NCBI RefSeq assembly: GCF_007004735.1
Contig: NZ_SSNL01000003.1
Span: 372,001 to 436,000 of the forward strand
Length of the DNA stretch: 64,000 nucleotides
DNA from: Salinigranum halophilum
Lineage (GTDB): Archaea; Halobacteriota; Halobacteria; Halobacteriales; Haloferacaceae
Direction of reading: 5' to 3'
In this document: one piece after another, positions 3,077-23,151 of the stretch
How positions within the stretch are numbered: the stretch's first letter is position 1
How the letters are laid out: each line of letters starts with the position of its first letter
Position numbers and translations under genes: made by a program
Notes under the pieces: model-generated
Database searches by the model: none
The model's input: only the letters and a program-made list of their open reading frames with translations
Told to the model about the DNA's origin: nothing

Positions 3077-3200
3077 CGTCCGCCGATAACGGTGCGGGTG
3101 ACTAATAGCCACGTCCTTTCCACACACGGTGGACGAACGTTCGGTTCTGTCCCGCCGGCCCCGTGTCCGTCTGAAGCGCTATTTTCAAGTACGGTGGTCC

Positions 3201-3228: not shown

Positions 3229-3265
3229 GCGCCGTTGGTCCAGTGGTAGGACATTGGCTTCCCAA
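3229..3265 (+). pseudogene. 5' half of the host tRNA-Gly(CCC), broken by the integrated element
   Basis: These 37 nt are the acceptor strand GCGCCGT, D arm, anticodon 5' stem ATTGGC and complete loop TTCCCAA of a tRNA-Gly(CCC). What follows (CATACGCGACAT) cannot pair with the stem, so the gene is cut after the loop. The matching 3' half is at 34407-34447: ATTGGC pairs with GCCAAT and GCGCCGT with ACGGCGC, both perfectly. Joining the halves restores one cloverleaf. Confidence 0.93.
3259..3265 (+). other. attL core (7-bp crossover sequence)
   Basis: TTCCCAA is the longest sequence shared by the two ends of the element at this position (second copy 34407-34413). Flanking bases differ on both sides. 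Seven bases is a typical crossover spacer for tyrosine recombinases, and the spacer equals the anticodon loop. Confidence 0.85.
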
Positions 3266-3302
3266 CATACGCGACATGTAGGCAGATTACCCGCGGCAAC
3301 AT

Positions 3303-3373
3303 GCGCCGGTGGTCCAATGGTAGGACTCGGGCTTCCCAAGCCCGCGGTCCGGGTTCGATTCCCGGCCGGCGCA
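3303..3373 (+). tRNA. tRNA-Gly (anticodon CCC), carried by the element
   Basis: A complete 71-nt cloverleaf: acceptor GCGCCGG/CCGGCGC, anticodon stem CGGGC/GCCCG around loop TTCCCAA (anticodon CCC), T arm CCGGG-TTCGATT-CCCGG, discriminator A, no encoded CCA. A T-run (3375-3379) follows and can end transcription. It differs from the broken host copy in the acceptor, D-loop, anticodon stem and variable region, so it is not a recent duplicate. It lies inside the element and can replace the disrupted gene's function. No separate box A is evident in the 37 bp before it. Confidence 0.93.
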
Positions 3374-3421
3374 CTTTTTCACCTGGTCTCTTGCTTAGCG
3401 AGATCTCATTTTGCAAAATGA

Positions 3422-3763
3422 GTGGACAAACTTTACGCTACGGGTAATGAACAAGCAAACTGGTGTTCATTGCCGGTGACTGATTCGAATCCAAAGACCT
3501 GTGCTGTCTGTACTGACAACCGTGCCACGTTCGAGGAGGGTCTTCCAGTCAACTGGGAGGAACATCTCCGTGAAACACGAGACTGGATACCTGTGGGCAC
3601 GCCTCGTACTCCGCTCTGTTCTGAATGTAAGCCTCAATACGATATTCTCAAAAGCGGCGGCTATGGACCTATATCAGCAGATGACGAAGAGGTTGCTGCG
3701 CTCTTGGAACAGATTTCGACGGAACATATTATCGAGCACTTCTCATTCCCGTCGCGTGAGTGA
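3422..3763 (+). CDS. Small zinc-ribbon protein of unknown function
   Basis: A 113-aa soluble protein. Two Cys pairs (C27-x2-C30 and C66-x2-C69) could bind one zinc, with an acidic linker between them. The start is GTG at 3422; the overlapping ATG at 3418 leads quickly to a stop. It is the first gene inside the left end, read away from attL and converging on the leftward mini-gene operon. No family is recognised. GC content is lower than in host genes, as expected for the element. Confidence 0.6.
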   Translation: MDKLYATGNEQANWCSLPVTDSNPKTCAVCTDNRATFEEGLPVNWEEHLRETRDWIPVGTPRTPLCSECKPQYDILKSGGYGPISADDEEVAALLEQISTEHIIEHFSFPSRE

Positions 3764-3827
3764 GTCTCGCAGTTCTCTCCCTGGGAACGGAGGATTCCCC
3801 ATCTGTTAAAATATGGGAAGTTCGGTC

Positions 3828-3944
3828 TTATACGTCGAGCTTGAGGATCGCCTTGGCCACCGGAGCCGCTGGTAGGTCGGATTCTGCGAGTGCTTGGAGC
3901 TCTCGACGATTGATTTTGACCTTGCGCTTTACGTCATCTTTCAT
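3828..3944 (-). CDS. Micro-protein of 38 residues, last gene of a four-gene operon
   Basis: The frame begins with ATG at 3944, which overlaps the stop of the upstream 54-aa gene (ATGA arrangement), and ends with TAA at 3828-3830. The peptide is basic at its N-terminus (MKDDVKRKVKINRRE) with a helical middle. No motif or family is recognised. Support comes from translational coupling and non-random composition. It could be a small regulator or an unexpressed frame. Confidence 0.5.
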   Translation of the reverse strand: MKDDVKRKVKINRRELQALAESDLPAAPVAKAILKLDV

Positions 3945-4105
3945 CTGTTACCACCCAGTCCAGCGTCGACAGCGGTGTGACCGTACAGGTGCCACGCGAA
4001 GTAGTGGTAGTCCTCGCCCCGCTTCGCCCCACAGAGAGGGCACTCCACCGTGACGAGGTATCGACCCGTGCTTGCTTGTCGATGGCCGATGTCACGAATC
4101 GCCAT
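3941..4105 (-). CDS. 54-residue C2H2-type zinc-finger protein
   Basis: Read from ATG at 4105 to TGA at 3941. It shows ECPLCG (C22, C25) then, 13 residues later, HLYGH (H39, H43), a classical Cys2His2 spacing with aromatic residues between. It overlaps the upstream 68-aa gene by 14 bp and the downstream 38-aa gene by the ATGA junction. Such single-finger proteins are common in haloviruses and are presumed DNA- or protein-binding. Its target is unknown. Confidence 0.65.
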   Translation of the reverse strand: MAIRDIGHRQASTGRYLVTVECPLCGAKRGEDYHYFAWHLYGHTAVDAGLGGNR

Positions 4106-4298
4106 AGGTCTCCTCGACGTATTTCACTTGGTGCGGCGGGTACCGTCTCAATTCCTCGCTGTCTTCGTCGACGATGGCGGCCACCCACCCGTTCTTACAC
4201 ACCCACAGGCGGTAGAACGTGAGCGTGGTACCGTCTTTGGTGACGAGGCGCGGCGTGTCCTCGTTGACCTCTTTTCGGGTGGTTCGCTGGTGGCTCAC
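4092..4298 (-). CDS. Small protein of unknown function (68 aa)
   Basis: Starts with GTG at 4298, whose bases overlap the stop of the RHH/winged-helix gene (GTGA), so the two are translationally coupled. The product is a compact mixed-charge protein with a beta-rich centre (TLTFYRLWVCKNGWVAAIVDED) and no zinc motif or membrane segment. It is the second gene of the leftward operon 4681-3828. No family recognised; perhaps an accessory factor of the upstream DNA-binding protein. Confidence 0.6.
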   Translation of the reverse strand: MSHQRTTRKEVNEDTPRLVTKDGTTLTFYRLWVCKNGWVAAIVDEDSEELRRYPPHQVKYVEETYGDS

Positions 4299-4681
4299 TG
4301 GTGAATCACCTTGTAGGAGACGAACCGCCCAGTCGTATCCGACTGCATCCGGAGATATCCGCGCCTACAGAGCGGCGCGAGGAGGTAGCGACGGACGGAA
4401 CGCTTGTCCATCGAAAATTGCTGAGAAAGCTTCCCCACTAGCACACGGCTATCCATCCATCCGCTCTCTGGGGCCGCCCGCCTGATAGCACGGTACGCCT
4501 GTGCCAGTTCATCGTCGTTGGGAAGTTCGACCTCGTAGTCGTCGTCACTCGGGAGATGTGCCCGAATTGCTTCCCGAATAAACTCCGACTGACTACCCGG
4601 CTGTGCCTCGACTGCCTCTTTGAGCGACGGGGATACTCGCGCAGATAAGACAGGCCGCTCATCTTCCAGCGAAAACGTCAC
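4295..4681 (-). CDS. Ribbon-helix-helix plus winged-helix DNA-binding protein
   Basis: A 128-aa protein. Residues 12-47 have the beta-helix-helix pattern of CopG/Arc-type regulators (SARVSPSLKEAVE...SEFIREAIRAHL). Residues about 60-128 look like a winged helix with a recognition helix near RSVRRYLLAPLCRRGYL. Start is GTG at 4681, preceded at good spacing by GGAGG. It heads a leftward operon with three tiny genes. Two 15-bp repeats with internal dyad symmetry lie 50-110 bp upstream and are the best candidate operators, so it may control itself; this is an inference. Confidence 0.7.
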   Translation of the reverse strand: MTFSLEDERPVLSARVSPSLKEAVEAQPGSQSEFIREAIRAHLPSDDDYEVELPNDDELAQAYRAIRRAAPESGWMDSRVLVGKLSQQFSMDKRSVRRYLLAPLCRRGYLRMQSDTTGRFVSYKVIHQ

Positions 4682-4731
4682 ACAAACCTCCGAGTTGTGT
4701 TACAGCTGAAAGCAAGGGGTCGAAATCCTCT

Positions 4732-4790
4732 CGCAGTCTTGCGATTAACCTTCATCCCAACTGGAACCGCCTCCGCGCAGTCTTGCGATT
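4732..4790. promoter_or_regulatory. Two 15-bp direct repeats, candidate operators
   Basis: CGCAGTCTTGCGATT occurs at 4732-4746 and again at 4776-4790. The offset of 44 bp is close to four helical turns, placing both on one DNA face. Each repeat contains a CGCA...TGCG dyad. They sit upstream of the RHH regulator gene. Confidence 0.55.
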
Positions 4791-4866
4791 TTCCGAATCG
4801 GAAGAAAATCACGGTGCGGCGTCGGGGCTCGAAGGGTGCGTTTCGACTGAAAGGTATAGTGTCTAC

Positions 4867-4903
4867 ACACCCCCTCCCCTCCTCCGAGGGTGGGTGGGGG
4901 TGT
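4867..4903. repeat. GC-rich nested inverted repeat
   Basis: Outer arms ACACCCCC (4867-4874) and GGGGGTGT (4896-4903) match perfectly, and an inner hairpin CCCTC-CTCC-GAGGG lies between them. It is placed downstream of the SWIM-protein gene and upstream of the RHH operon, so a transcription stop or an operator are both possible. Of the surrounding non-coding stretch (4682-5060), only this and the 15-bp repeats stand out. Confidence 0.5.
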
Positions 4904-5060
4904 CTGTGATTTCGACTACACTGGGGGACACAACCAAACGAACGATTGACCGAACAAAGGTGTATGCCGACCCGTTCCTGTACCCAGCCGACCAAAGCAA
5001 AGCATTGGCGGGTTCGACATACGTCTCGGCGTTGACCAGGCCGTCGTAAGAAGGTGTCCC

Positions 5061-5468
5061 TCATGGCTTCGCCTCCGGTGGGTGCGTCGCCCCACACACC
5101 GGACAGACCGGCGCAGCGTCGAGACCGTCAGCGGCGTGGTGAACCGTAACCGTACCGTGGCGCTCGGCCATCCTGATTCCCCACAGATGGGCACACTCGT
5201 CGTCGTGGAACTGCCAGCCTTTGCACGAGCATCGACCAAACCGCGCTAACTCGCCTTGCCAATCGTCGACGAAGTACTCGACGACGTGTTCGTGTCGCTC
5301 ATCAACGGAGCAGTCGGTAATCGCCACCGTATAGTGGTACTCCCCGATAGGTCGGATGACGACACCGTTGTTCTCGACACGCTGGTACGACGCCGACGGT
5401 TCCTCGGGAACGTCGTAACGGAGTCTCTCGGCGTCTGTGTCGAAGGCGTCGATCCAAGAGCTACTCAT
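5061..5468 (-). CDS. SWIM zinc-finger protein
   Basis: A 135-aa protein with a SWIM motif at residues 80-94: CSCKGW, then C92 and H94 in ECAHLW, matching CxC-x(n)-CxH. A second knuckle CPVCGATH lies at 122-129. SWIM domains bind DNA or proteins in recombination and chromatin proteins; in haloarchaea and their viruses they often occur as small stand-alone proteins of unknown role. The start ATG overlaps the last 8 bp of the upstream RHH/zinc gene, so the two form an operon. Confidence 0.75.
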   Translation of the reverse strand: MSSSWIDAFDTDAERLRYDVPEEPSASYQRVENNGVVIRPIGEYHYTVAITDCSVDERHEHVVEYFVDDWQGELARFGRCSCKGWQFHDDECAHLWGIRMAERHGTVTVHHAADGLDAAPVCPVCGATHPPEAKP

Positions 5469-5694
5469 ATGCTACCGTTGCCTCCCCCTCGCAGTACGGG
5501 CATGTCAAAGTCTCACGCCCACCATACGGAGATGCCTTGAAATAGTCGCCACAGTCGCTCTCGCACGCAAACCACACGAGGTGAGAATGGCGGTAGATAT
5601 CGATTGCTCTCCGTATCGCACCGCTCCGTGTTTCGTCGAGTTGATCGAGCCAGTCCTGTTCTTTGTCAGTCAGATAGACTGTTGGATTCGGCAT
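5461..5694 (-). CDS. RHH-like protein with C-terminal zinc ribbon
   Basis: Starting at ATG 5694, this gives 77 aa: a beta-helix-helix N-terminus (VYLTDKEQDWLDQL...SGAIRRAIDIYR) followed by a Cys4 module (C44-x3-C48 and C65-x2-C68). The open frame runs further upstream, but that part is Pro/Cys-rich and holds a motif repeated elsewhere at DNA level, so I treat it as leader. Probably a DNA-binding regulator, translationally coupled to the SWIM gene. Confidence 0.65.
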   Translation of the reverse strand: MPNPTVYLTDKEQDWLDQLDETRSGAIRRAIDIYRHSHLVWFACESDCGDYFKASPYGGRETLTCPYCEGEATVAYE

Positions 5695-5754
5695 TGGTAT
5701 ATCCGCGACATGGCAACCTCTGTCGGAGTCGTCCGACGTCCGCTGGTTAGGCGG

Positions 5755-5765
5755 TGGTACAGGGT
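5755..5765 (-). repeat. Copy 1 of the recurrent TGGTACAGGGT motif
   Basis: One of four exact 11-bp copies (others at 6012, 7240 and 13697). It lies about 60 bp upstream of the 5694 start, in the presumed leader. Beyond the core it shares a GGTTAG...GCGG flank with the copy at 7240. Confidence 0.55.
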
Positions 5766-5939
5766 TATTGTCGCATACGGTTCCAGCATGGCATGACACT
5801 TGTATGTTAGGGGATATTTCCTAGAATTCTGGGTGTCGAAATATGCCACATTTTGGGTCTCAATTTCCCCAAATGGGCGTCTCGATACCGATTATGAGCT
5901 GTATGGACCAAGACTTAATGTAGCACCCTGATAAGAAAC

Positions 5940-6100
5940 GCATGCAACGCGTGAAACGGCGAGTAACGCGTTGGCCAGCCGAGGATGGTACCCTCGACTT
6001 GGCAAACCCTCTGGTACAGGGTTGGGGCCTTCCGGCCCCTTGCTTCGGGCGTGCAAGCCGTCAGCAACTGTTTGTCTTATGGCATCGTATAAGAATCCCC
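5940..6100. ncRNA. Hairpin-rich region, possible structured RNA
   Basis: This non-coding stretch between the recombinase stop and the 5694 operon holds several local hairpins: CGAGG/CCTCG, ACCCT/AGGGT, a perfect GGGGCC-TTCC-GGCCCC, CTTGC/GCAAG, and CTTAT/ATAAG close to the recombinase end. The density is unusual for this element. It also holds one copy of the TGGTACAGGGT motif (6012-6022) within the AGGGT hairpin. It may be a small RNA on either strand, or a leader and terminator region. No known RNA family is recognised. Confidence 0.35.
6012..6022 (-). repeat. Copy 2 of the recurrent TGGTACAGGGT motif
   Basis: An exact 11-bp copy inside the hairpin-rich region. Unlike the other three it is not just upstream of, or at, a gene start. 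Confidence 0.45.
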
Positions 6101-6115
6101 GTTAAAAGGAGGAAC

Positions 6116-6781
6116 CTACACTTTGTAGAGTCCCTCGCGTTCGAGTGCCCGGTTTATCGACCGTCTCGACGTGTTTAGTCGGGCTGCCGCCTTTCGTTTC
6201 GACAGCTCACCGGATTCGACCGCTTCGAGAACAGCCACCACGTTGAGATAGTCGTCACCTTCGACGAGAATCCCGTCGTCCTTCTCGAAGCCGAGTGGTG
6301 CGGGACCGTGGGCGTAGTCGTCGTTGGCTGCTCGGCGGGCGGCGATGCCCTCCTTCGTGTTCATCTGCTTGACTCGTGCTTCCCACTCGGCGAACGCACC
6401 CAGCATTTGCATCTGGAGTCGACTCATCGGGCTGTCTTTCTCGTCGCCGAACGAGAGGCCGTCGCGGACGAAGTGTATCGACGTGTCGTGAGCGGTGACG
6501 CGCTCGACTGTCGAGAGCAGGTCCTGTTGCGAGCGGGCCATGCGGCTGATCTCGTGGCAGACGACGGCGACCACCTCGTCGGCCTCGACAGCTTCCATCA
6601 GTCGGCGGTAGCCGTCGCGCTTGGTGTTCGTGCCGGTACTCTTGTCGCGGTACGTGGTGATCTCCGAGAGGTCGGCCCCCAGTTCGTTCTGCGCGTACTC
6701 GCTGGTGCTGGTCAACTGGCGGTCGAGAGACTGGTCGGCAGTCGACACCCGGACGTAACACGCGATGCACGCCTCACTCAT
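6116..6781 (-). CDS. Serine recombinase (resolvase/invertase family)
   Basis: A 221-aa site-specific recombinase. The N-terminal catalytic domain shows CYVRVSTADQSLDRQ with nucleophile S13, then the conserved VVCHEISRMARSQQDLL and GAFAEWEARVKQMNTKEG segments. The C-terminus (from about 185) is a helix-turn-helix (LSKRKAAARLNTSRRSINRALERE). Small enzymes of this type are frequent in haloarchaeal plasmids and viruses, acting as resolvases or invertases. The ATG at 6781 overlaps the stop of the upstream zinc-finger gene. No obvious invertible segment was found, so multimer resolution is the simpler guess. Confidence 0.88.
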   Translation of the reverse strand: MSEACIACYVRVSTADQSLDRQLTSTSEYAQNELGADLSEITTYRDKSTGTNTKRDGYRRLMEAVEADEVVAVVCHEISRMARSQQDLLSTVERVTAHDTSIHFVRDGLSFGDEKDSPMSRLQMQMLGAFAEWEARVKQMNTKEGIAARRAANDDYAHGPAPLGFEKDDGILVEGDDYLNVVAVLEAVESGELSKRKAAARLNTSRRSINRALEREGLYKV

Positions 6782-7055
6782 GATCGGTGTGCTCCTCGTA
6801 GAAGTGGTCAAGCAGCGCGGCGACGAGTTCGCTTTGACGCTCACGGACGAGTTCGGTCCCACAGGTGTTGCACTCGTGCGCGTGGCGGTCACGCGAGGAA
6901 CCGTCGATGGGTTCGGGGATTCGACCCAGGCTGTCGGCGAGGAACTGGACAGTAGCGACGTCGGCCTCGACGGCGTGGGGGCCACAGAGATCGCCATCGG
7001 CGAGTTGGTACAGCGCAGCCCGTCCGCACTCCTCGCGCTCGCACTCGACTTCCAT
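6774..7055 (-). CDS. Double zinc-finger protein (93 aa)
   Basis: Two potential zinc sites: C5/C10/C24/H27 near the N-terminus and a Cys2His2 finger C62-x2-C65...H84-x4-H89 near the C-terminus. No membrane segment. It is the middle gene of the 7258-6116 operon, overlapping both neighbours, and is co-translated with the serine recombinase, so it may assist or regulate recombination. The family is not recognised. Confidence 0.7.
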   Translation of the reverse strand: MEVECEREECGRAALYQLADGDLCGPHAVEADVATVQFLADSLGRIPEPIDGSSRDRHAHECNTCGTELVRERQSELVAALLDHFYEEHTDHE

Positions 7056-7258
7056 CAGACGCCCTCCGGCGCTTCGTGTCGAGTGATACGCCGGGCGACA
7101 GAGTGGGCTGGTCCCATCTCGGCGGCCTCGATGAACGCCTCGGCTATGTCGGTCGTCGTGTGAACGACGGTGCTCGTCGCCTCGTCAACGACGTAGTACG
7201 TCGGACTGTCTCGCTCGGAGTCCGCATGGTTAGTGCGGGTGGTACAGGGTGGAGTCAT
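7055..7258 (-). CDS. Small protein of unknown function (67 aa)
   Basis: The chosen ATG at 7258 lies 28 bp downstream of a clear TATA box, giving a nearly leaderless mRNA. The first 15 codons overlap a copy of the TGGTACAGGGT motif and look poorly protein-like, so the true start could be further in. The rest (YYVVDEATSTVVHTTTDIAE...) resembles a small alpha/beta domain. First gene of the recombinase operon. Function unknown. Confidence 0.55.
   Translation of the reverse strand: MTPPCTTRTNHADSERDSPTYYVVDEATSTVVHTTTDIAEAFIEAAEMGPAHSVARRITRHEAPEGV
7240..7250 (-). repeat. Copy 3 of the recurrent TGGTACAGGGT motif
   Basis: An exact copy at the very start of the 7258 gene, about 35-50 bp downstream of its TATA box. 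It shares the GGTTAG...GCGG flank with copy 1 although the reading frames differ, so the conservation is at DNA or RNA level. Confidence 0.55.
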
Positions 7259-7285
7259 CGTCCGTATTCGCGCAGGGGGATAGCC

Positions 7286-7293
7286 TATATAAA
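7286..7293 (-). promoter_or_regulatory. TATA box of the recombinase operon
   Basis: On the minus strand this reads TTTATATA, a near-ideal haloarchaeal box A. It lies about 28 bp upstream of the ATG at 7258, predicting a transcript with a leader of only a few bases. Confidence 0.7.
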
Positions 7294-7303
7294 GAAAACA
7301 CAA

Positions 7304-7322
7304 CTCGCACACCCTGTGCGAG
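7304..7322. promoter_or_regulatory. Perfect 8-3-8 palindrome, candidate operator
   Basis: CTCGCACACCCTGTGCGAG has 8-bp perfect arms around a 3-bp centre. It sits 11 bp upstream of the TATA box of the recombinase operon and between two divergent transcription units, a typical position for a dimeric activator or repressor site. Confidence 0.6.
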
Positions 7323-7381
7323 AACGAACGTTACTGCACAGGGAACAATGATTGGGACGTCTTGTTATCAACAAAGCGGCT

Positions 7382-7413
7382 TTACTGGACCATTTCTGTG
7401 GACTTACTGGACC
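7382..7413 (+). promoter_or_regulatory. Direct repeat upstream of the zinc-ribbon cluster
   Basis: TTACTGGACC occurs at 7382-7391 and 7404-7413, 22 bp apart (two helical turns). The pair lies 60-90 bp upstream of the first zinc-ribbon start and just upstream of a candidate box A (CTTATT, about 7438-7443), so it may bind a regulator of this cassette. Confidence 0.5.
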
Positions 7414-7471
7414 GGCTGCTATGTGGTCTCGAAAACACTTATTGTGGGGAAATAGTTACTTTGGGTTGTAC

Positions 7472-7570
7472 ATGCCTATTTGTCCTCGATGTAAGAACGA
7501 TGCAGCGATGAGCACGCTTAAGAAATCGAAGACTGGGAAAGTCTGCGACGAATGTGGACGGGAGTTTTAA
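7472..7570 (+). CDS. Zinc-ribbon micro-protein 1 (32 aa)
   Basis: A complete 32-aa protein with pattern MP-I-CPRCK...VCDECGREF: C4/C7 and C25/C28 can hold one zinc ion. It is the first of four tandem paralogues. The linker is basic (LKKSKTGK), unlike the acidic linkers of the others. Small CPxCG-type zinc-finger proteins are known in haloarchaea such as Haloferax volcanii, where some affect motility or biofilm. A tandem set of four is unusual. The next gene starts 4 bp after this stop. Confidence 0.8.
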   Translation: MPICPRCKNDAAMSTLKKSKTGKVCDECGREF

Positions 7571-7574
7571 TTCC

Positions 7575-7685
7575 ATGCCTCTGTGTCCGCAGTGCAAAGA
7601 GGGAGCAATGATGACCACTGAGGCCCTCGCAGATGGAGAAAAGAGAGAAACCAAAATCTGTGATGAATGTGGAAACAAATTCTAA
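7575..7685 (+). CDS. Zinc-ribbon micro-protein 2 (36 aa)
   Basis: Second tandem paralogue: MPLCPQCK at the start and ICDECGNKF at the end, with a linker four residues longer than its siblings (ALADGEKRETK). The Cys ligands are all kept although linker sequences have diverged strongly. Only 2 bp separate its stop from the next ATG, so the four genes are surely on one transcript. Confidence 0.8.
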   Translation: MPLCPQCKEGAMMTTEALADGEKRETKICDECGNKF

Positions 7686-7687
7686 CC

Positions 7688-7786
7688 ATGCCACTTTGCC
7701 CAGAATGTAAGGGAGGCGTTGAGATTCATACCACCGTTGACAGTGACAAGGTGCGAACTTGCGATGAGTGCGGGAAACGGTTCTAA
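7688..7786 (+). CDS. Zinc-ribbon micro-protein 3 (32 aa)
   Basis: Third tandem paralogue, starting MPLCPECKGG and ending TCDECGKRF. Both CxxC pairs are intact and the linker is beta-prone (VEIHTTVDSDKV). It is more similar to paralogue 4 in length and spacing. Function unknown; zinc binding is inferred from the motif. Confidence 0.8.
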   Translation: MPLCPECKGGVEIHTTVDSDKVRTCDECGKRF

Positions 7787-7791
7787 TACAC

Positions 7792-7890
7792 ATGCCACTT
7801 TGCCCGAGATGTAAGTCCGACACGGAGACACACATGACAGTAAATATTGAGGAACCATCTATTTGCGATGAGTGTGGTAAGAAATTCTGA
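7792..7890 (+). CDS. Zinc-ribbon micro-protein 4 (32 aa)
   Basis: Fourth tandem paralogue, starting MPLCPRCKSD and ending ICDECGKKF. Its TGA overlaps by one base the ATG of the following membrane-protein gene, so ribosomes finishing this gene can restart on that one. This coupling ties the zinc-ribbon set to the membrane protein. Confidence 0.8.
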   Translation: MPLCPRCKSDTETHMTVNIEEPSICDECGKKF

Positions 7891-8417
7891 TGACAGGCCC
7901 CGATGGGAATAACGAACAGAACGATCCTAATGCCGACGTAGACCTTTCCCAACTGGCACTTGATGAGATACGACTTCGGTATCAAGAGGAGTCCGACCGG
8001 AGGACGGCAGTGGAGGCCAAGATTGGAACGGTCCTAACAGTTGACGCAATCATCGTTTCAATTATCGGTATATTTTCAAATCTCACACTCCTGCTTTTGG
8101 GAGCGATGGGTGTTGCTATCTTCTCTGTAATTAATGGAATTTTAGCCCTCAGACTGAGAGATTACCATACCCCAGGGAAAGATGAAGACGATTACTTACA
8201 GTACATCGATAATCCACCAGAACAGATTCGGCGTGAACTAGTCAAGTCTTACCTCACATCTATCGTAGGAAATGAGGAGACAGATGACCCAGAGTTATTT
8301 TTCAAAGGAAACCGGACCAAGAACGACGAGAAGTACAAGAAGTTGAATCAGTGTCTGAGACTAACAGGACTTTCTCTATTTTTAGTTCTGCTTCACTCTA
8401 TTCTATCGATCTGCTAA
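7890..8417 (+). CDS. Three-TM membrane protein, possible effector
   Basis: A 175-aa protein with an acidic cytoplasmic N-terminus, an amphipathic helix leading into TM1 (GTVLTVDAIIVSIIGIF, about 50-66), TM2 (LLLLGAMGVAIFSVINGILAL, about 70-92), a charged soluble segment of about 60 aa, and TM3 at the C-terminus. The ERRTAVEAKIGTVLTVDA pattern before TM1 resembles that before the membrane helices of small TM effectors in antiviral signalling systems (PycTM- or SLATT-like). This is a resemblance only; no cyclase gene is nearby. It is co-translated with the zinc-ribbon quartet and followed by a restriction enzyme. Confidence 0.75.
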   Translation: MTGPDGNNEQNDPNADVDLSQLALDEIRLRYQEESDRRTAVEAKIGTVLTVDAIIVSIIGIFSNLTLLLLGAMGVAIFSVINGILALRLRDYHTPGKDEDDYLQYIDNPPEQIRRELVKSYLTSIVGNEETDDPELFFKGNRTKNDEKYKKLNQCLRLTGLSLFLVLLHSILSIC

Positions 8418-8516
8418 TTAGAAATTGCAAGAAAGAGCGGATCTTCGACTCATTTATCTCATTTATCATAATGACCCACAACTTCTTGAAGACGGCAAAT
8501 AGGAATACGATAACAG

Positions 8517-11500
8517 ATGAGTCAGGCGACGCTCGGGCCGACGCCCTACAACAATTCGAATCTTTTCTCCGGCTATTACCTCGAAGAACGAGTTGACGAT
8601 CTCGACACCTGGGACTGCGACGAAGAGGCAGAAGTGGCGTTCGAGGAACTCCAACGAATCTGGGAACTGGAATTCGAACTCGTAGAGTCGTACAAGGAAG
8701 ACGAGTTGCTCAGTTCGTGGATCGATGAGGTCCTCGACGTTCTCGGTTTCGGTACCCTGGCGGAAACGACTTTACCCGAGAAGGGTGGCTACAATGACCG
8801 TCTGCTCTTCGAGTCCGACGAGGTTCGCCGCGATGCGAGTCTCCGAAAGCGTGACGGGGAAGTCGAGGCGATGTACGGGCTTGCCTCTGCGGTACTCGAA
8901 GCGAAGCAGTGGGGTGCTGATTTCACTAAACGATTCGCCGAGACGCGGTCGTACCGTGACGCATCCCACCAGATCAAATACTATCTTGAGCACACCCCGG
9001 AGCGACTCCAGTGGGGGATACTGACGGACGGAAAGAAGTGGCGACTGTACGGGACGAAAGACTACGCGACCGAGACGTACTACGAGGTCGACCTCCCCGA
9101 ACTGCTCATGTCGGGGGACGTTGAGAAATTCAAATATTTCTACCTCTTCTTCCGGCCCGAAGCCTTCCGTGAAGTCTCTGGCACTTCCTTCCTCGAAACC
9201 GTCTGGAACGAATCCGAGACGGCCGCACAGGAACTCGGGGAGGACCTTCAGGACAACGTCTTCACTGCCCTTCGGGTGCTCGGTGAGGGGTTCATCGAAA
9301 CCAACGATCTCTCTATCGACCCCGACGACGCCGAAGCCCGTGAGGAACTGAAAGAGCAGTCGCTCGTCCTCCTCTACCGGCTGATGTTCGTGTTGTACGG
9401 CGAATCTCGCAATCTCATCAGCCCCGACGAACCGGCCAAACAGCGAGAGTTCGAGGAGAATTTCAGCCTCGACGAACTTCGGTACGAGATTCACGACAAC
9501 ATCAGTTCGGGAGGGTCGTTCGAGGAGTACAGCGAGTACTCCACCTCGATGTGGGGGCGACTGCAGGACCTCTTCCGACTCGTCGACTCGGGCGAAGAGT
9601 CGCTGGGAGTTCCCCCATACAACGGCGGCCTGTTCGACGGCGACTCACACTCGTTCCTCGAACGGAACGAGGTGTCCGACCGGTACATCGCCGAGGTGGT
9701 GTACCGACTCGGAACGACGCGAGCGGACGACGGTGATGGGTTCGTGCTTGCGGACTACGCCGACCTCGACACTCGGCACCTGGGGACGATCTATGAGGGA
9801 CTCCTCGAACACGAGTTCCGAATCGCACCCGAACAGTACGCCGCTGTCGCCGAGGACGGTAGACAGGTGTGGAAGCCCGCGACAGAGGTGAGTGTCGCCG
9901 AGGCTGTCGAGACAGTCGAGCGAGGAGAGTTGTACGTCGTCAACGACGATGGCGAGCGGAAGGCCACGGGTGCGTACTACACACCCGACTACGTGGTGGC
10001 GTACATCGTCGAGGAGACAATCGACCCCCTGCTGGCCGATATCAAGGAAGAGCTACAGGCGGATGGCCTGGAGCCGAGTGACCGCGAGTACTTCGCTCGA
10101 TTCTGGCAGTCCGTGCTGGACCTCACGGTACTCGATCCTGCGATGGGCTCGGGCCACTTCCTCACGAAGGCGACCGGCTATCTGACCGAGCGGGTGATGG
10201 AGGTCGTCCGCGAACAGGAGATCCAGAGCTACGACGAGCAGGACCTGCGGCGACAGATCGCCAAAGAGTGCATCTACGGCGTCGACGTGAACGGAATGGC
10301 CGTCGAACTGGCGAAGCTCTCGATGTGGCTGGAGACGCTTGCGGCCGACAAACCGCTCGCGTTCCTCGACCACCACCTCAAGGCCGGTAACTCGCTCGTT
10401 GGTTCGGACATCACGGAGGTCCTCTCTGACGATGCCGACGAGGAGGGTGGACAACTCACTCTCATGCAGGCTGCTGCGCGAGTTCGTCGTCGGACTCTCG
10501 AACACGTGATGGAACTGATGCAGGATCTCCTCGCCATCGATAACGAGCGACTGGAAGACATCAAGTCGATGGAGGAGCTGTACGACGAGATCCGTGACGA
10601 CCCGTTGTATGGGCGGCTCTTCGAGTTAGCGAACGTTCACACGGCGGAGCGGTTTGGGTTGGACGTGCCTGAGGGTGTGTACGAGGAAATGGCTGGCGCG
10701 ATTGAGGACGGTGATGAGTGGGCCGAAATTCGTGAACGGGACTGGTTCGCCTCGGCGCAGGCAACGGCTGGTGAGGAGGATTTCTTCCATTGGGAGCTTG
10801 AGTACCCGGAGGTGTTCTTCGGGAGCGAGGGTAAGAGACGTGAAGACGCCGGATTTGATGCAGTCATTGGAAACCCCCCTTACGTACGTATCTATGGAGA
10901 CACACTCCCCGAGGACTACGTCGAATATCTTAGAGAGGTTTACGAAACCGCTCACATGAAATTTGATTTGTATGTCGTATTCACCCAACTAGGGATTGAG
11001 TTAGCCCAAGATGGTGGCACATTCTCGTATATCATCCCGGACAAATTCACTAGCACCCCGTATGGAGAGCCTCTGCGGAATTTGATTTTGGAAGAGACAG
11101 AGATTCTGTCGATTTTGGACCTTCGAGAGCGAGAGGTATTCGATGGAGTGACTGTCTCCAACCTCATCCCCGTGTTGCGACGCAGCAGTGCAGCCAGAGA
11201 TTCGGTGGAGATTCGCAACCTAGACGGCATTGACACTATCGAAACAACCCAACTGAGTCTTGAAGCGATTGTCGGTGATGAAGACAATTCGTTCCGTCTC
11301 GGCCGCTCTGTAGAGGATTTCAAACTCACCGAGAGTATCCGAGACCAGTCGATTCGGTTTGATTCTATTTTTTATACAAACTGGGGACTCAGAACCGGAA
11401 CGAAAGAAAAAACGGAGCGATTCGTCGTCGAGGAATCTTCGGATCCTAGAGCAAAGCCGATGATTCGTGGGAAGGATATCATTGAGCGATACCAACTACG

Positions 11501-12650
11501 ATCTCCTCAAGAGTACATCATCTATGAAAAGCCAGAGTTGTACAACCCGATGTTTGAGGAATTGTTTGAAAGTGACAAGATCGTCTTTCGAAAAATTAGT
11601 GGAAGGGGATTGATGGCTGTGGCCGACGAGAGTGGATACTACTGCTTCTCCACACTCATCCCCTGTGTGAACATTCGACATGTTGCGAATGTTTCTCGCT
11701 CAGGGATTCCCGAGGTCACGGAGGAGTCGAAGTCGTATCAGGACATGTACTACCCGCTCGCGGTGGTAAATTCGACGTTGATGGAGTGGTTCTACGGTGT
11801 CAATTTGTCTGATGATCTGAGCGTCGTGCCGGGTCATATTAACGAACTACCGATTCCAGCAATCGAGGACATAAACTCGGAGGTGGATGAAGAGGAGTAT
11901 GAGACAAGACTTGATGTGGTGATGGCTGGGGTTCGTGACGAATCGGAACTCGATACGGCGATGGAGGCGGTTCACGGATTACATTCAGATCGAATCTATC
12001 ACGACCTTCTCGCAGATCTTGGTCGGGAAATGATGGATATGAATACCAAACATATTGAACTCAATCTCTCACTGCTTGACTATCTTGGAACATATGACGA
12101 GGGACCGACTCTGGTTGATGTAGGATTCACCCAGCCCCCACCGAACGCTGCGGAGTCGGTTCTCCAAGAAACAACTAAAGAGAAACCAAATCTTCGGATC
12201 GGTCGGGCTGAAGTACATCGTGAATCAAAATCAACCGTTGAAATCGAACTCACTGCGCGGTACAAGCCCGATGATGACACGGTCGACACAGACCAGTGGG
12301 GATACACCGAAACTGAGCTCCTCCCCGCATTACGAATCACCGACCTCTCGGCTACCGAGGCTGAGTTAATTGAAGCGTTCGTCCCGGTCGCCGTCGACGA
12401 AGCTGGTGGGTTCGCCAACTTCCGTGAAACAGCAACGAAAACAAATTCGCTCATTGACCGGCTTCGCAAGCTCACACTTCCGCAAATCAGTAGTGTTCAG
12501 GACGGCTTGGAGAGTTACACAAAAACACGAGAGCGTGCCGACGAACTGGAGTCAAGGATCGAACGTACAGACGACCTAATTGACGAGATTGTCTACGAAC
12601 TGTACGGGCTGTCCGAGCAAGATATTAGGACCATAGAAGCGGCTATTTAG
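8517..12650 (+). CDS. Type IIG restriction-modification enzyme (Eco57I-like, single chain)
   Basis: A 1,377-aa protein joining nuclease, methyltransferase and specificity parts. The N-terminal PD-(D/E)xK-type site is visible as NDRLLF (D94) and EAKQW (E128, K130). The conserved GAYYTP stretch precedes SAM-binding motif I, DPAMGSGHF (540-548). The amino-methyltransferase motif NPPY is at 786-789. The remainder should hold target recognition and helical linker regions. It would methylate host adenines and cut unmodified DNA, so it could exclude rival phages. No separate methylase or specificity gene is present. GC drops sharply from about 10,850, near NPPY, to the end. BREX PglX is an alternative, but it lacks the nuclease-like N-terminus and no BREX partners occur here. 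Confidence 0.88.
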   Translation: MSQATLGPTPYNNSNLFSGYYLEERVDDLDTWDCDEEAEVAFEELQRIWELEFELVESYKEDELLSSWIDEVLDVLGFGTLAETTLPEKGGYNDRLLFESDEVRRDASLRKRDGEVEAMYGLASAVLEAKQWGADFTKRFAETRSYRDASHQIKYYLEHTPERLQWGILTDGKKWRLYGTKDYATETYYEVDLPELLMSGDVEKFKYFYLFFRPEAFREVSGTSFLETVWNESETAAQELGEDLQDNVFTALRVLGEGFIETNDLSIDPDDAEAREELKEQSLVLLYRLMFVLYGESRNLISPDEPAKQREFEENFSLDELRYEIHDNISSGGSFEEYSEYSTSMWGRLQDLFRLVDSGEESLGVPPYNGGLFDGDSHSFLERNEVSDRYIAEVVYRLGTTRADDGDGFVLADYADLDTRHLGTIYEGLLEHEFRIAPEQYAAVAEDGRQVWKPATEVSVAEAVETVERGELYVVNDDGERKATGAYYTPDYVVAYIVEETIDPLLADIKEELQADGLEPSDREYFARFWQSVLDLTVLDPAMGSGHFLTKATGYLTERVMEVVREQEIQSYDEQDLRRQIAKECIYGVDVNGMAVELAKLSMWLETLAADKPLAFLDHHLKAGNSLVGSDITEVLSDDADEEGGQLTLMQAAARVRRRTLEHVMELMQDLLAIDNERLEDIKSMEELYDEIRDDPLYGRLFELANVHTAERFGLDVPEGVYEEMAGAIEDGDEWAEIRERDWFASAQATAGEEDFFHWELEYPEVFFGSEGKRREDAGFDAVIGNPPYVRIYGDTLPEDYVEYLREVYETAHMKFDLYVVFTQLGIELAQDGGTFSYIIPDKFTSTPYGEPLRNLILEETEILSILDLREREVFDGVTVSNLIPVLRRSSAARDSVEIRNLDGIDTIETTQLSLEAIVGDEDNSFRLGRSVEDFKLTESIRDQSIRFDSIFYTNWGLRTGTKEKTERFVVEESSDPRAKPMIRGKDIIERYQLRSPQEYIIYEKPELYNPMFEELFESDKIVFRKISGRGLMAVADESGYYCFSTLIPCVNIRHVANVSRSGIPEVTEESKSYQDMYYPLAVVNSTLMEWFYGVNLSDDLSVVPGHINELPIPAIEDINSEVDEEEYETRLDVVMAGVRDESELDTAMEAVHGLHSDRIYHDLLADLGREMMDMNTKHIELNLSLLDYLGTYDEGPTLVDVGFTQPPPNAAESVLQETTKEKPNLRIGRAEVHRESKSTVEIELTARYKPDDDTVDTDQWGYTETELLPALRITDLSATEAELIEAFVPVAVDEAGGFANFRETATKTNSLIDRLRKLTLPQISSVQDGLESYTKTRERADELESRIERTDDLIDEIVYELYGLSEQDIRTIEAAI

Positions 12651-12722
12651 GAGTGAGAGGGTACGGGGAGCAGTCACCCGACCCGTCGAAGTGCGACTCG
12701 GCTTATCGTTTGATTGAGTCTC

Positions 12723-13502
12723 TCATTCGTCGTCACCGCGCACGATTTCGGTAGCTTCCTTCATTGCGTATCCAGGCGTCTGCGCGGTCTTGGCGTTCAT
12801 GTAATCTCGACCGAGTTGGGTCAACTGATAGAGGTTCTTGCTCCCTTCTTTCTCGTCGCGGTAGACCCAGCCATGACTCGTGGCTTTCGAGAGCGTAGCC
12901 GAGACTGATTTGTAGCTGACCTCCCAGTCAGTGTCGTCCAGCATGGAGGTGATTTGTCCGAGCGTGAGGCCGCCTTGAACTTGGTGAAGAAGACCGCAGA
13001 CGTACCACTTGTTCGTATCCGGATTGAGCGGCGAGGAGATGATGTCACGGAACTCGTCGGGGCCGACTGTCTCACCTTCAGCAACTCTGTCGATGAGATC
13101 TGATTCGAGGTAGTCGCGGGCTGCTTGCCCGGTGTTCTCAGGTCGGTTGGTTACAGGTGGTTCGTTGGTAGGGCCGTCGAGATTGCCTTCAGATGGGGCG
13201 GCTGTGGCGGATGCACCACCGTCGGCAGAGAGTAGCTGGTCGGTGGTGTGTCTCTCACCTTGTGATGGGCCGCTGGGCGATGTCTCTGTGCTTTCAGGAC
13301 CCTCGGTCGTAGTTCCATCCTCGGTGCTCGTGCCGCTCTCGGTAGCTTCGTGTTGGTCCTTCAGGAATGGATTGTTGGATTCGACTTCGATTCGGATTCT
13401 CCCGATACTCGGGGTTAGCTCGATCTGGTTTAGGAGCGATTTGAGTAAGGGGATCTGTTCGCCGGTTACTTCCAGTTCTACCGTGTGCTGGTGTTCAGTC
13501 AT
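12723..13502 (-). CDS. Winged-helix protein with a disordered middle
   Basis: A 259-aa protein from the ATG at 13502. The N-terminus (VELEVTGEQIPLLKSLLNQIE...RIRIEVES) forms a small alpha/beta domain. Residues about 50-130 are a low-complexity Ser/Thr/Glu/Pro linker. The C-terminal third has a winged-helix pattern (GGLTLGQITSMLDD...VSATLSKATSHGWVYRDEKEGSKNLYQLTQLGRDY). Likely a DNA-binding regulator of the element. It overlaps the stop of the 51-aa gene upstream and converges on the restriction gene. Confidence 0.75.
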   Translation of the reverse strand: MTEHQHTVELEVTGEQIPLLKSLLNQIELTPSIGRIRIEVESNNPFLKDQHEATESGTSTEDGTTTEGPESTETSPSGPSQGERHTTDQLLSADGGASATAAPSEGNLDGPTNEPPVTNRPENTGQAARDYLESDLIDRVAEGETVGPDEFRDIISSPLNPDTNKWYVCGLLHQVQGGLTLGQITSMLDDTDWEVSYKSVSATLSKATSHGWVYRDEKEGSKNLYQLTQLGRDYMNAKTAQTPGYAMKEATEIVRGDDE

Positions 13503-13650
13503 GGTCGATTTGTTTGGCAACCCTCAGTGGGTCTGGTTGGTTTCCATGACTCGACCGCGTCGCACCTGCTCGTAGAAATGCGTCGACCTGGTCGTCGCGC
13601 AAAACTATCCGCTCACCGTTCGCGTACACGATCAGCGTTCGCTTACTCAC
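13495..13650 (-). CDS. Small protein with beta-hairpin N-terminus (51 aa)
   Basis: Read from GTG 13650 to TGA 13495, overlapping the start of the winged-helix gene by 8 bp. The N-terminus RTLIVYANGERIVLRDDQVDAFLRAG looks like a beta-hairpin plus helix, similar to small DNA-mimic or regulatory proteins, but no family is recognised. The overlapping coding arrangement supports expression with the winged-helix gene. Confidence 0.55.
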   Translation of the reverse strand: MSKRTLIVYANGERIVLRDDQVDAFLRAGATRSSHGNQPDPLRVAKQIDHD

Positions 13651-13696
13651 GGTTGACTTGTTAGGTCAACACGGTGTGGTGGTTGGCCGGTCATGG

Positions 13697-13707
13697 TGGT
13701 ACAGGGT
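13697..13707 (-). repeat. Copy 4 of the recurrent TGGTACAGGGT motif
   Basis: An exact copy about 47 bp upstream of the GTG at 13650, in the presumed leader of the 13650-12723 operon. A 15-codon frame just after it ends on that GTG, but it is too short to call. Confidence 0.55.
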
Positions 13708-13867
13708 TGGGAGTGCGTAACCGCTTCCCGAGTATCTCACATCGTACTACTGACTAAGGCTTTGTGATGATTCTATCAGAATTCAATCGGACAGATGCGA
13801 TCTCAACTAGAAATTCAGAGAACAAGCCTGCACAAGTATTAGCCACTGAAGAAACATATTCGAGGTT

Positions 13868-14200
13868 ATGGACTGGAAGAAGATTCGTTCCGGAGGCTTT
13901 CGATACGGCCTAGTTTACGCTGGCGTCACCGTTCTTGTCATTGGGTTTGTGACTAGAAGTGAATTAGCGGTGGCAGCACTCTTCATTGTCGGACTGATGC
14001 TTCTACTGTTCGTCTTCGGGATTGGGAACGTACGAACGGGAGACATCTCGATTTCAGGACAGTCGTATGACGTAGATAGCCAACTGGCAGACGCTCATAT
14101 TGATCAGCACGAGTACGTGAGCTTTGACCAGAAACTCCTCTTTTTTGCGATTGGACTGGCGATATTTGGGTTTGGAGGAATGGTGGTCCTAGGAGGATGA
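13868..14200 (+). CDS. Small membrane protein (110 aa)
   Basis: Two TM segments lie near the N-terminus (YGLVYAGVTVLVIGFV at about 13-28 and VAALFIVGLMLLLFVFGIG at about 36-54) and a third at the C-terminus (LLFFAIGLAIFGFGGMVVLG), with a soluble loop between. GC content is low for the window. It stands alone and converges on the late virion operon. Function unknown; superinfection exclusion or a holin-like role are possible but unsupported. Confidence 0.7.
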   Translation: MDWKKIRSGGFRYGLVYAGVTVLVIGFVTRSELAVAALFIVGLMLLLFVFGIGNVRTGDISISGQSYDVDSQLADAHIDQHEYVSFDQKLLFFAIGLAIFGFGGMVVLGG

Positions 14201-14216
14201 CTTCCTTCGCCCTGTG

Positions 14217-14522
14217 TCAAGGGGGAGCTTTCTTATCGTCATCCTCACGGGGTCGAGCAGCGTTAATCCATTCTGCCACCAGTCGCAGCACGTCACCGGT
14301 CGGGACGATAATGAGGATGAACAGCACCAGGAGAACACCGACAGGCATCTCCATCGGCTGTTTCATCCAGTCGCCGAACACCGTTGCTACCGCCGTCGAC
14401 AGCGCGAGGATGATAGCGAGCGCACTGGTCCTCGGCTCGATCTCGACACCGCCGTCTGTCGCGTACCGTGGTGTTGGCTCGGAGACGTACCGCTGTAACC
14501 AGAGACGAAGGCGGCGCAACAT
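14217..14522 (-). CDS. Two-TM protein, last gene of the virion operon
   Basis: A 101-aa protein with a basic N-terminus, TM1 (SALAIILALSTAVATVFG, about 35-52) and TM2 (VGVLLVLFILIIVPTGDVL, about 63-82), then a charged, Lys/Asp-rich tail ending DDDKKAPP. It directly follows the spike gene. The size and topology fit a minor membrane virion protein or a holin; neither can be shown from sequence. Confidence 0.65.
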   Translation of the reverse strand: MLRRLRLWLQRYVSEPTPRYATDGGVEIEPRTSALAIILALSTAVATVFGDWMKQPMEMPVGVLLVLFILIIVPTGDVLRLVAEWINAARPREDDDKKAPP

Positions 14523-14524
14523 GG

Positions 14525-16525: not shown

Positions 16526-17121
16526 GCGAGGCTCACCGTGCCGGTCTTGGTCGTTCCAGTCGAGTCCTTGACCTCGAAGACGAGGTTCGATCCCGCCTCG
16601 TCGAGTCGGACGCGCATTTCGTTGTTCTCCAGCGTCTCGGCCGTCCCGCCGTCGACGACGCCGTGTATCAGCTCATCTCCGGCCACTCGTGCGACGTTCT
16701 CGGTATCGACGACAGCCCCGTACCCGAGTGCCGTCGAGGCCGTCTGGTTGGCCTCTGCGGACGGTCCCACGGCCACGCCTCGATACGCCCGCGACTTGGT
16801 GGCGTAGCCGACAGCGACCTGCTGTGCGCCGCCTGTCCCCAGCACGTCCGAGGCAGACGCCGAGGTGCCGATACCGACGCTGTTCGGGACGCGAACCAGA
16901 GAACCGCCAATAGCGGTGGACCCTTGCGGAACTGCCTCTGCCGGGGCGTTGATTGCGGTGGCGTGTTGGCCGTCCGCCTCGGTGCTGTACCCGAGAGCGA
17001 GGGCCGGGGCACTCGACAGGCCGTTGTCCGCCACGGCGTCCTGCCCGAGCGCCATGTTCACCGTGCCGAAGAGCCGCTGGCGAAGGAGCTTCGCCATCGG
17101 CTCAGTCGTCCCTATCGTCAT
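16522..17121 (-). CDS. YadA-head-like fibre protein
   Basis: A 199-aa protein whose middle is built of short Ala/Gly/Ser repeats of the trimeric YadA/haemagglutinin head type: ALGYSTEADGQHATAIN, SVGIGTSASA, QVAVGYATKSRA, GVAVGPSAEANQTAS, ALGYGAVVD. In bacteria such repeats make a left-handed trimeric beta-roll used for adhesion. The C-terminus is a beta-rich domain. It overlaps the spike gene (ATGA), so the two are probably made together as one vertex complex. Trimerisation is an inference from the repeat. Confidence 0.7.
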   Translation of the reverse strand: MTIGTTEPMAKLLRQRLFGTVNMALGQDAVADNGLSSAPALALGYSTEADGQHATAINAPAEAVPQGSTAIGGSLVRVPNSVGIGTSASASDVLGTGGAQQVAVGYATKSRAYRGVAVGPSAEANQTASTALGYGAVVDTENVARVAGDELIHGVVDGGTAETLENNEMRVRLDEAGSNLVFEVKDSTGTTKTGTVSLA

Positions 17122-17327
17122 GGCGAGGAGGTGTCGATCCAGAGGTCGCCCGCCTCGGGGTTCGCCGGAGCGGTGTCCCCGACGTAGAGCTTTACGTCAC
17201 CGTTCGAGATGACGAGGTTGTCCCCGTTGAGCGTCACGTTCTCCGGTGTCGGCATCGCAGACGAGTAGACGGAGCGTTCGAGGAGCTTGATGCGTTCGAC
17301 GAGATCGGTTTCTTCTGCGTTTGGCAT
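17118..17327 (-). CDS. Small virion-associated protein (69 aa)
   Basis: From the ATG at 17327: an N-terminal helix (EETDLVERIKLLERSVYS), a beta-hairpin (NVTLNGDNLVISNGDVKLYVG) and the ending PEAGDLWIDTS. The GDLWIDT tail is common at the end of phage fibre and tail-associated modules, where it marks a surface-exposed beta segment. It overlaps the fibre gene and probably serves as an adaptor or collar. No name can be assigned. Confidence 0.65.
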   Translation of the reverse strand: MPNAEETDLVERIKLLERSVYSSAMPTPENVTLNGDNLVISNGDVKLYVGDTAPANPEAGDLWIDTSSP

Positions 17328-17335
17328 TGGTGGAT

Positions 17336-20681: not shown

Positions 20682-20683
20682 AT

Positions 20684-21057: not shown

Positions 21058-21067
21058 GCTACCACCC

Positions 21068-22320: not shown

Positions 22321-22331
22321 TGTTGTGTGGT

Positions 22332-22616: not shown

Positions 22617-22642
22617 TACGAGACGTGCCTTTCCGACCTGTG

Positions 22643-22666
22643 CGGTTATACGGGCCAATTAATTGG
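22643..22666. promoter_or_regulatory. Late promoter with adjacent 12-bp palindrome
   Basis: In the 141-bp divergent gap, the minus strand carries a box A-like GTATAACC (about 22643-22650) 27-34 bp from the ATG at 22616. Immediately upstream is the perfect palindrome CCAATTAATTGG (22655-22666), and a wider GCCAAT...ATTGGC pair overlaps it. A regulator here could control both capsid and ATPase operons. Confidence 0.55.
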
Positions 22667-23147: not shown

Positions 23148-23151
23148 TTCG

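What the first reader, a model, noticed from the sequence alone, without database searches (positions are those of the whole stretch)
3229..3373. Element splits tRNA-Gly(CCC) in the anticodon loop and supplies a complete replacement tRNA
Seen: a 5' half at 3229-3265, a matching 3' half at 34407-34447 and an intact, sequence-distinct tRNA-Gly(CCC) at 3303-3373 inside the element. Known: elements inserted at anticodon loops normally carry a 3' tRNA fragment that rebuilds the gene. Here the gene is not rebuilt; a whole tRNA is carried instead. The host may depend on the element for decoding GGG if no other CCC tRNA exists, giving an addiction-like retention.
Basis: partly seen in the sequence, partly recalled or inferred. 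Interest (0 to 1): 0.85.

Follow-up and report, generated by a model that had tools for sequence, protein, structure and literature searches.

The report
Archaeal provirus splits tRNA, supplies replacement
A virus integrated in a salt-loving archaeon has cut the host's only tRNA-Gly(CCC) gene in two and carries a complete substitute tRNA next to the junction; a second archaeon keeps a decayed copy of such an insert in which the substitute tRNA is still intact, which extends a strategy known from bacterial phages to Archaea.

Summary
A 31.1-kb SH1-like (sphaerolipovirus-related) provirus sits in a haloarchaeal tRNA-Gly(CCC) gene. The crossover core is exactly the 7-nt anticodon loop (TTCCCAA), so neither junction rebuilds the gene. 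The joined halves are 100% identical to the single intact tRNA at the same locus in a congener. The provirus carries a complete tRNA-Gly(CCC) 37 nt inside its left end, and this is the only CCC-Gly tRNA of the genome.

I found a second case in another genus (G028): a 1.6-kb remnant at the same locus with only a related integrase (54% identical) and a 68/71-identical replacement tRNA. The host halves there are decaying, while the viral tRNA is intact and is the only CCC copy. Four congeners have the empty site. The architecture therefore recurs, and the viral tRNA outlived the virus.

This is archaeal "tRNA-dependent lysogeny", described experimentally for actinobacteriophages (PMC10865867); I found no archaeal report. 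The window case differs in tRNA placement: beside attP, downstream of the host's conserved tRNA promoter, with no obvious promoter of its own. Strict "addiction" is not shown: three near-complete relatives lack any CCC-Gly tRNA, so tRNA-Gly(TCC) can apparently suffice. Expression is untested.

The parts
3173..3194 (+). Host tRNA-Gly(CCC) promoter region (GAAGCGCTATTTTCAAGTACGG), left upstream of the orphan 5' half
   Evidence: Invariant in G000, G001, G002 and G003 upstream of the same tRNA gene; BRE/TATA-like by inspection; function inferred
3229..3265 (+). Orphan 5' half of the host tRNA-Gly(CCC) gene (positions 1-37), part of attL
   Evidence: identical to the G002 intact gene
3259..3265 (+). 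attL copy of the 7-bp crossover core TTCCCAA (the whole anticodon loop)
   Evidence: the shared sequence between the two ends stops at both edges of the loop
3266..3302 (+). 37-nt provirus spacer between the orphan 5' half and the carried tRNA; no TATA-like stretch
   Evidence: at most 5 of 8 A/T in any 8-mer
3303..3373 (+). Complete provirus-carried replacement tRNA-Gly(CCC), the only CCC-Gly tRNA of the genome
   Evidence: fold z-score -2.87
3375..3379 (+). T5 stretch right after the tRNA (likely archaeal terminator)
   Evidence: Sequence; function inferred
3266..34413 (.). 31,148-bp provirus (one core copy included)
   Evidence: Empty site in G002; G+C 0.50-0.64 against about 0.65-0.71 in the flanks; SH1 homologues
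6116..6997 (-). Serine recombinase (resolvase/invertase family)
   Evidence: Pfam PF00239 3.6e-32; PHROG DNA invertase
8517..12650 (+). Eco57I/TaqI-type DNA methyltransferase, 1377 aa
   Evidence: Pfam PF07669 7.9e-36
17339..22616 (-). Virion gene block related to SH1 VP12, VP7, VP4, VP13, VP2, VP5, VP10, VP9, in SH1 order
   Evidence: tblastn with SH1 proteins, VP7 58%, VP4 51%, VP12 60% identity; VP4
24430..25158 (+). Packaging ATPase, 66% identical to that of SH1
   Evidence: PHROG 2666
33029..34357 (-). Tyrosine integrase, its start about 50 nt from the right core
   Evidence: Pfam PF00589 2.4e-20; R..HxxR..Y residues present
34407..34447 (+). attR: core TTCCCAA (34407-34413) plus orphan 3' half of the host tRNA-Gly(CCC)
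   Evidence: 41/41 identical to the G002 gene

Best explanation
An SH1-like haloarchaeal virus integrates with its tyrosine integrase into the host's single tRNA-Gly(CCC) gene. attP and attB share only the 7-bp anticodon loop, so strand exchange leaves two dead halves (shown by sequence). The virus makes lysogens viable or fit by bringing its own complete tRNA-Gly(CCC) immediately beside attP, in the orientation of the host gene (presence and placement shown by sequence; effect inferred). After integration the host promoter left upstream of the orphan 5' half probably transcribes through 5' half, spacer and viral tRNA to the T5 terminator, and RNase P and the tRNA 3' nuclease release the mature viral tRNA (inferred). 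The viral tRNA thereby replaces the host gene. In G028 the virus genes are gone, the host halves are decaying and the viral tRNA is still intact, as expected if the replacement has become the host's tRNA gene (shown by comparison; selection inferred). It works as tRNA-dependent lysogeny, here in Archaea.
For: Split halves with a 7-bp core, joined halves identical to the congener's gene with both flanks collinear. The carried tRNA is intact and is the sole CCC-Gly tRNA. The provirus has an SH1-like virion block, ATPase and a complete integrase. Second case in G028: 5' half, 48-nt spacer, viral tRNA (68/71), integrase (54%), 3' half, in a 1.6-kb insert; four congeners empty. In G028 the 3' half has lost part of the anticodon loop, while the viral tRNA has only 3 differences from the window's, two of which form a compensatory acceptor pair (positions 7 and 64 of the gene), and it is that genome's only CCC-Gly tRNA. 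Promoter region conserved upstream of the orphan half, none visible in the spacer. GGG is about 21% of Gly codons in the flanking host ORFs, and 310 of 345 good genomes of the order keep a CCC-Gly tRNA by a strict pattern. A mechanism with the same defining anatomy is proven in mycobacteriophages (PMC10865867).
Against: No expression or charging data. Three near-complete relatives have only TCC and GCC Gly tRNAs, so loss of the CCC tRNA need not be lethal. Only two cases were found; a 170-genome family scan gave no third. The G028 promoter region is less clear. Folding of the long precursor alone does not favour the cloverleaf.
Confidence: 0.8

Rival explanations
1. The host already had two tandem tRNA-Gly(CCC) genes and the provirus entered one of them, so the intact one is host DNA caught near the junction.
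For: The intact tRNA lies only 37 nt from the split half, in the same orientation.
Against: It lies between the two halves, inside the insert. Congeners G001, G002 and G003 have one intact CCC tRNA here. The same kind of tRNA recurs beside a related integrase in another genus whose four congeners also have one.
Confidence: 0.03
2. The viral tRNA mainly serves lytic growth or counters host tRNA-cutting defences, and lies next to attP by accident.
For: Virus-borne tRNAs are proposed to have these roles (PMC10865867).
Against: Exact match of isotype and anticodon to the destroyed gene, placement beside attP in the orientation of the host gene, recurrence in G028, and survival there after loss of all virus genes but int.
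Confidence: 0.1
3. The split gene still works: the two halves are transcribed separately and joined in trans, as in the split tRNAs of some archaea, and the viral tRNA is an extra.
For: Sequences flanking the halves are more complementary than shuffles in both cases (9/500 and 3/500), and the halves cofold into a cloverleaf.
Against: The complementarity is what a dyad-symmetric recombinase site gives. The 3' half has only the divergently transcribed integrase gene upstream. In G028 the 3' half has lost anticodon-loop bases.
Confidence: 0.03
4. The replacement is neutral: tRNA-Gly(TCC) reads GGG well enough, and the carried tRNA is drifting cargo.
For: G008, G011 and G331 lack a CCC-Gly tRNA.
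Against: The viral tRNA stays intact with a compensatory pair change, whereas the orphan 3' half in G028 decays; 310 of 345 good genomes keep a CCC-Gly tRNA.
Confidence: 0.12

Closest known systems
tRNA-dependent lysogeny of actinobacteriophages (Fionnbharth, cluster L, Gaia; Guerrero-Bustamante and Hatfull 2024, PMC10865867)
   Same: Tyrosine integrase, attB in a single-copy host tRNA, 8-11 bp core that does not rebuild the tRNA, virus tRNA of the same isotype
   Different: Archaeal host and a tailless internal-membrane (SH1-like) virus; core is exactly the 7-nt anticodon loop; tRNA lies beside attP downstream of the host promoter, whereas the Fionnbharth tRNA lies elsewhere in the genome and has its own strong promoter; a remnant with retained viral tRNA is seen in G028; requirement not tested here
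Lj965 prophage of Lactobacillus johnsonii (as cited in PMC10865867)
   Same: Junction does not rebuild the tRNA; prophage codes for a cognate tRNA
   Different: Bacterial; not examined here
Canonical archaeal tRNA-gene integrations (SSV, pNOB8, pT26-2, SNJ2; review PMC8371274)
   Same: Tyrosine integrase acting in a tRNA gene, here at the anticodon loop
   Different: Those restore an intact tRNA by a shared 3' (or, in pTN3, 5') part; here nothing is restored
SH1-like proviruses of the HalaCibP1/HalaPauP1 kind (PMC5332951; probably like the proviruses in G065 and G121)
   Same: SH1-like capsid proteins and a related integrase (about 32%)
   Different: In G065 and G121 integration is at the 3' end of tRNA-Gln with 17- or 27-bp repeats and the tRNA is kept

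Membership tests
tRNA-dependent lysogeny | Tyrosine-family integrase | tested here: met
   PF00589, 2.4e-20; catalytic residues present
tRNA-dependent lysogeny | attB overlaps a host tRNA gene | tested here: met
   Empty site is an intact tRNA-Gly(CCC) in G002, 71/71
tRNA-dependent lysogeny | Short core; tRNA not reconstructed at either junction | tested here: met
   7-bp core TTCCCAA; only the carried tRNA is detected
tRNA-dependent lysogeny | Virus encodes a complete tRNA of the same isotype | tested here: met
   3303-3373, same isotype and same anticodon
tRNA-dependent lysogeny | The disrupted tRNA is the only copy in the host | tested here: met
   No other CCC-Gly tRNA in G000 or G028
tRNA-dependent lysogeny | The disrupted host tRNA is essential | tested here: inconclusive
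   310 of 345 good genomes keep it by strict pattern, but G008, G011 and G331 lack it
tRNA-dependent lysogeny | Virus tRNA required to establish lysogeny | not testable with these tools
   Needs integrative plasmids or mutants
SH1-like viruses (Alphasphaerolipovirus and relatives) | Two major capsid proteins (VP4, VP7) and packaging ATPase, in syntenic order | tested here: met
   VP4 51%, VP7 58%, ATPase 66% identity, adjacent block
SH1-like viruses (Alphasphaerolipovirus and relatives) | Production of virions | not testable with these tools
   Induction experiment needed
SSV-type suicidal integrase | att site inside the integrase gene, which integration splits | tested here: not met
   Integrase 33029-34357 is whole and the core lies outside it
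Canonical tRNA-restoring integration | Intact host tRNA rebuilt at one junction | tested here: not met
Split (trans-spliced) archaeal tRNA | Both halves intact, expressed, and joined through a BHB motif | tested here: inconclusive
   Complementary flanks but a decayed 3' half in G028 and no evident promoter for the 3' half; RNA data needed

The most novel reading that the evidence does not exclude
A viral tRNA gene takes over permanently from a host tRNA gene by promoter capture: the virus tRNA is silent or weak on the free genome, switches on only when integration puts it behind the host's own tRNA promoter, has a different anticodon stem from the target (so the integrase may no longer recognise it), and persists as the host's only CCC-Gly tRNA after the virus is lost, as in G028. 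This would be a natural disrupt-and-rescue element in Archaea.
Probability: 0.35. Interest if true: 0.75.

Novelty: new variant of a known kind. Interest (0 to 1): 0.62.

Why it matters
A 2021 review of archaeal tyrosine recombinases states that integration restores an intact tRNA gene in all cases (PMC8371274). This is a clear exception, with a shown empty site and a second case in another genus. It brings tRNA-dependent lysogeny to Archaea and to a tailless virus lineage, and the G028 remnant suggests how viral tRNAs can replace host tRNA genes for good. It also gives a testable reason why a virus carries a single tRNA.

Tried and rejected
Tandem host tRNA genes: rejected by the empty sites. 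A second CCC tRNA elsewhere: none. Vertical inheritance of one insertion: G001, G002 and G003 and the four congeners of G028 keep an intact CCC tRNA, and the integrases are only 54% identical. Anticodon-stem divergence as proof of self-resistance: the viral tRNA of G028 differs from a congeneric host tRNA (G413) only at positions 25-28 and 40-44, but host tRNAs also vary mostly there and the same anticodon arm occurs in two f12 genomes, so this is only consistent. Relatives in IMG/VR: no hits for integrase, MCP or tRNA pattern. GTDB contigs: no integrase hit; the pattern scan gave none, but its gap limit of 45 would have missed the 48-nt spacer of G028. Other integrase relatives (at most 52% identical): no tRNA in the 20-35 kb read around 13 of them. 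Trans-splicing: examined and disfavoured. No structure prediction was needed.

Full report
What is there. The window lies on an 812-kb contig of a haloarchaeal genome (G000, 4.2 Mb, 11 contigs). A tRNA-Gly(CCC) 5' half at 3229-3265 and a 3' half at 34407-34447 flank 31,148 bp of lower-G+C DNA. The sequence shared by the two ends is TTCCCAA, exactly the 7-nt anticodon loop. The base on each outer side already differs, so neither junction can encode a tRNA. Joined, the halves are identical at 71 of 71 positions to the only tRNA-Gly(CCC) of congener G002, where the left flank (81%) runs up to the core and the right flank (82%, from 34557) continues on the other side. The empty site is therefore shown.

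The carried tRNA. At 3303-3373, 37 nt inside the left end and in the orientation of the host gene, lies a complete tRNA-Gly(CCC) (RF00005, 69.5 bits), followed by TTTTT at 3375-3379. It differs from the split gene at 12 positions. The genome's other Gly tRNAs have anticodons TCC and GCC, so this is the only CCC-Gly tRNA. GGG makes up about 21% of Gly codons in long ORFs of the flanks and of the element (ORFs picked greedily, so approximate).

The element. tblastn with proteins of halovirus SH1 finds VP12, VP7, VP4, VP13, VP2, VP5, VP10 and VP9 in one block and the packaging ATPase (66%). A tyrosine integrase (33029-34357, minus strand; PF00589) with the R, HxxR and Y residues starts about 50 nt from the right core. 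The element also has a serine recombinase and a large Eco57I/TaqI-type methylase. It is a provirus related to alphasphaerolipoviruses. Whether it is active is not known.

A second case. A search of 392 genomes of the order with the viral tRNA found a 96% match in G028, another genus of the family. There, at the same locus, reading along the tRNA: a 5' half (58359-58323), a 48-nt spacer, an intact tRNA-Gly(CCC) (58274-58204; 68/71 identical to the window's), an integrase 54% identical to the window's in the same relative position, and a 3' half (about 56707-56667), in an insert of about 1.6 kb. Four congeners have one intact tRNA-Gly(CCC) with both flanks collinear. The host halves in G028 have decayed: the 3' half reads TTTCAA for TTCCCAA and has T-arm changes. 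The viral tRNA differs from the window's at three positions, two of which (7 and 64 of the gene) keep an acceptor-stem pair. G028's other Gly tRNAs are TCC and two GCC. The integrase keeps its catalytic residues but has a premature stop about 43 residues before its end. So the virus genes are gone but the viral tRNA remains as the sole CCC-Gly tRNA. A pattern scan of the 170 genomes held for the family found only these two cases. Congeners on both sides keep an intact CCC tRNA and the integrases are distant, so two separate insertions are the simplest reading.

Contrast with the usual strategies. In congener G003 a different 7.2-kb insert in the same gene copies the first 44 nt and rebuilds an intact tRNA from an element-borne 5' part. 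Related SH1-like proviruses in G065 and G121, with integrases about 32% identical, sit at the 3' end of tRNA-Gln with repeats of 17 and 27 bp and leave the tRNA whole. The window's arrangement is thus a departure from what related elements do.

How it probably works. The 22-bp block GAAGCGCTATTTTCAAGTACGG upstream of the gene is invariant in G000 to G003 and is still in place upstream of the orphan half, whereas the spacer has no TATA-like stretch. I infer that the host promoter drives a transcript of 5' half, spacer and viral tRNA up to the T5 stretch, and that RNase P frees the tRNA. The minimum-energy fold of the long precursor on its own does not favour the cloverleaf, which is a caution. 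On this reading the viral tRNA would be switched on by integration itself. That step is inferred.

Dependence. By a strict pattern, 310 of 345 good genomes of the order have a CCC-Gly tRNA, but the pattern misses loops such as CTCCCAC. G008, G011 and G331 have only TCC and GCC Gly tRNAs by covariance search and ARAGORN. The CCC tRNA is therefore usually kept but can be lost, presumably because the TCC tRNA reads GGG by wobble. The word addiction goes beyond the evidence; replacement with likely fitness benefit is supported.

Comparison with known systems. The anatomy meets every sequence-testable feature of tRNA-dependent lysogeny as defined for mycobacteriophages: tyrosine integrase, core of about 10 bp or less, no reconstruction, same-isotype virus tRNA (PMC10865867). 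Essentiality is inconclusive and requirement is untested. Of the 18 papers in the held library that use the term, only three also mention archaea, and judging by titles and the passages read none describes an archaeal case; subscription journals are not covered. The 2021 review of archaeal integrases says intact tRNA genes are restored in all integration events (PMC8371274). The differences from the phage cases are the archaeal host and virus type, the exact anticodon-loop core, the tRNA beside attP and behind the host promoter (the Fionnbharth tRNA has its own promoter), and the remnant that kept the tRNA.

Verdict. A real feature, a new variant of a known kind. It is best read as archaeal tRNA-dependent lysogeny with a recorded case of a viral tRNA outliving its virus.

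Noticed in passing
L060 (G001:C1:591532-591553, 591630-591651); G002:C1:3580527-3580548; G003:C1:3577636-3577657: Short copies of the tRNA-Gly 3' end (about 22 nt) lie just downstream of the intact gene in three congeners, possibly scars of earlier 3'-end integrations at this hotspot.
   Followed up: no
L113 (G003:C1:3577747-3585021): A 7.2-kb insert in the same tRNA gene rebuilds it from an element-borne 5' part of 44 nt, with its own upstream region, like the pTN3 type.
   Followed up: partly
G121:C1:1954664-2010300 (L173-L176): Two near-identical SH1-like proviruses in tandem (27,768-bp period) in tRNA-Gln, with 27-bp att repeats.
   Followed up: partly
L148 (G000:C8:127243-128394): A second integrase of the same kind (41% identical) in the window's own genome, with no tRNA found in the 31 kb read.
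   Followed up: no
G008, G011, G331: Near-complete haloarchaeal genomes without any tRNA-Gly(CCC); how they lost it was not studied.
   Followed up: partly
window 8517-12650 and 6116-6997: The provirus carries a 1377-aa Eco57I/TaqI-type methylase and a serine recombinase of the invertase kind; possible modification or phase-variation roles.
   Followed up: no
window 3266-3302 and 34367-34406: The two attP arms are more complementary to each other than shuffles, also in G028; probably dyad symmetry of the recombination site.
   Followed up: partly
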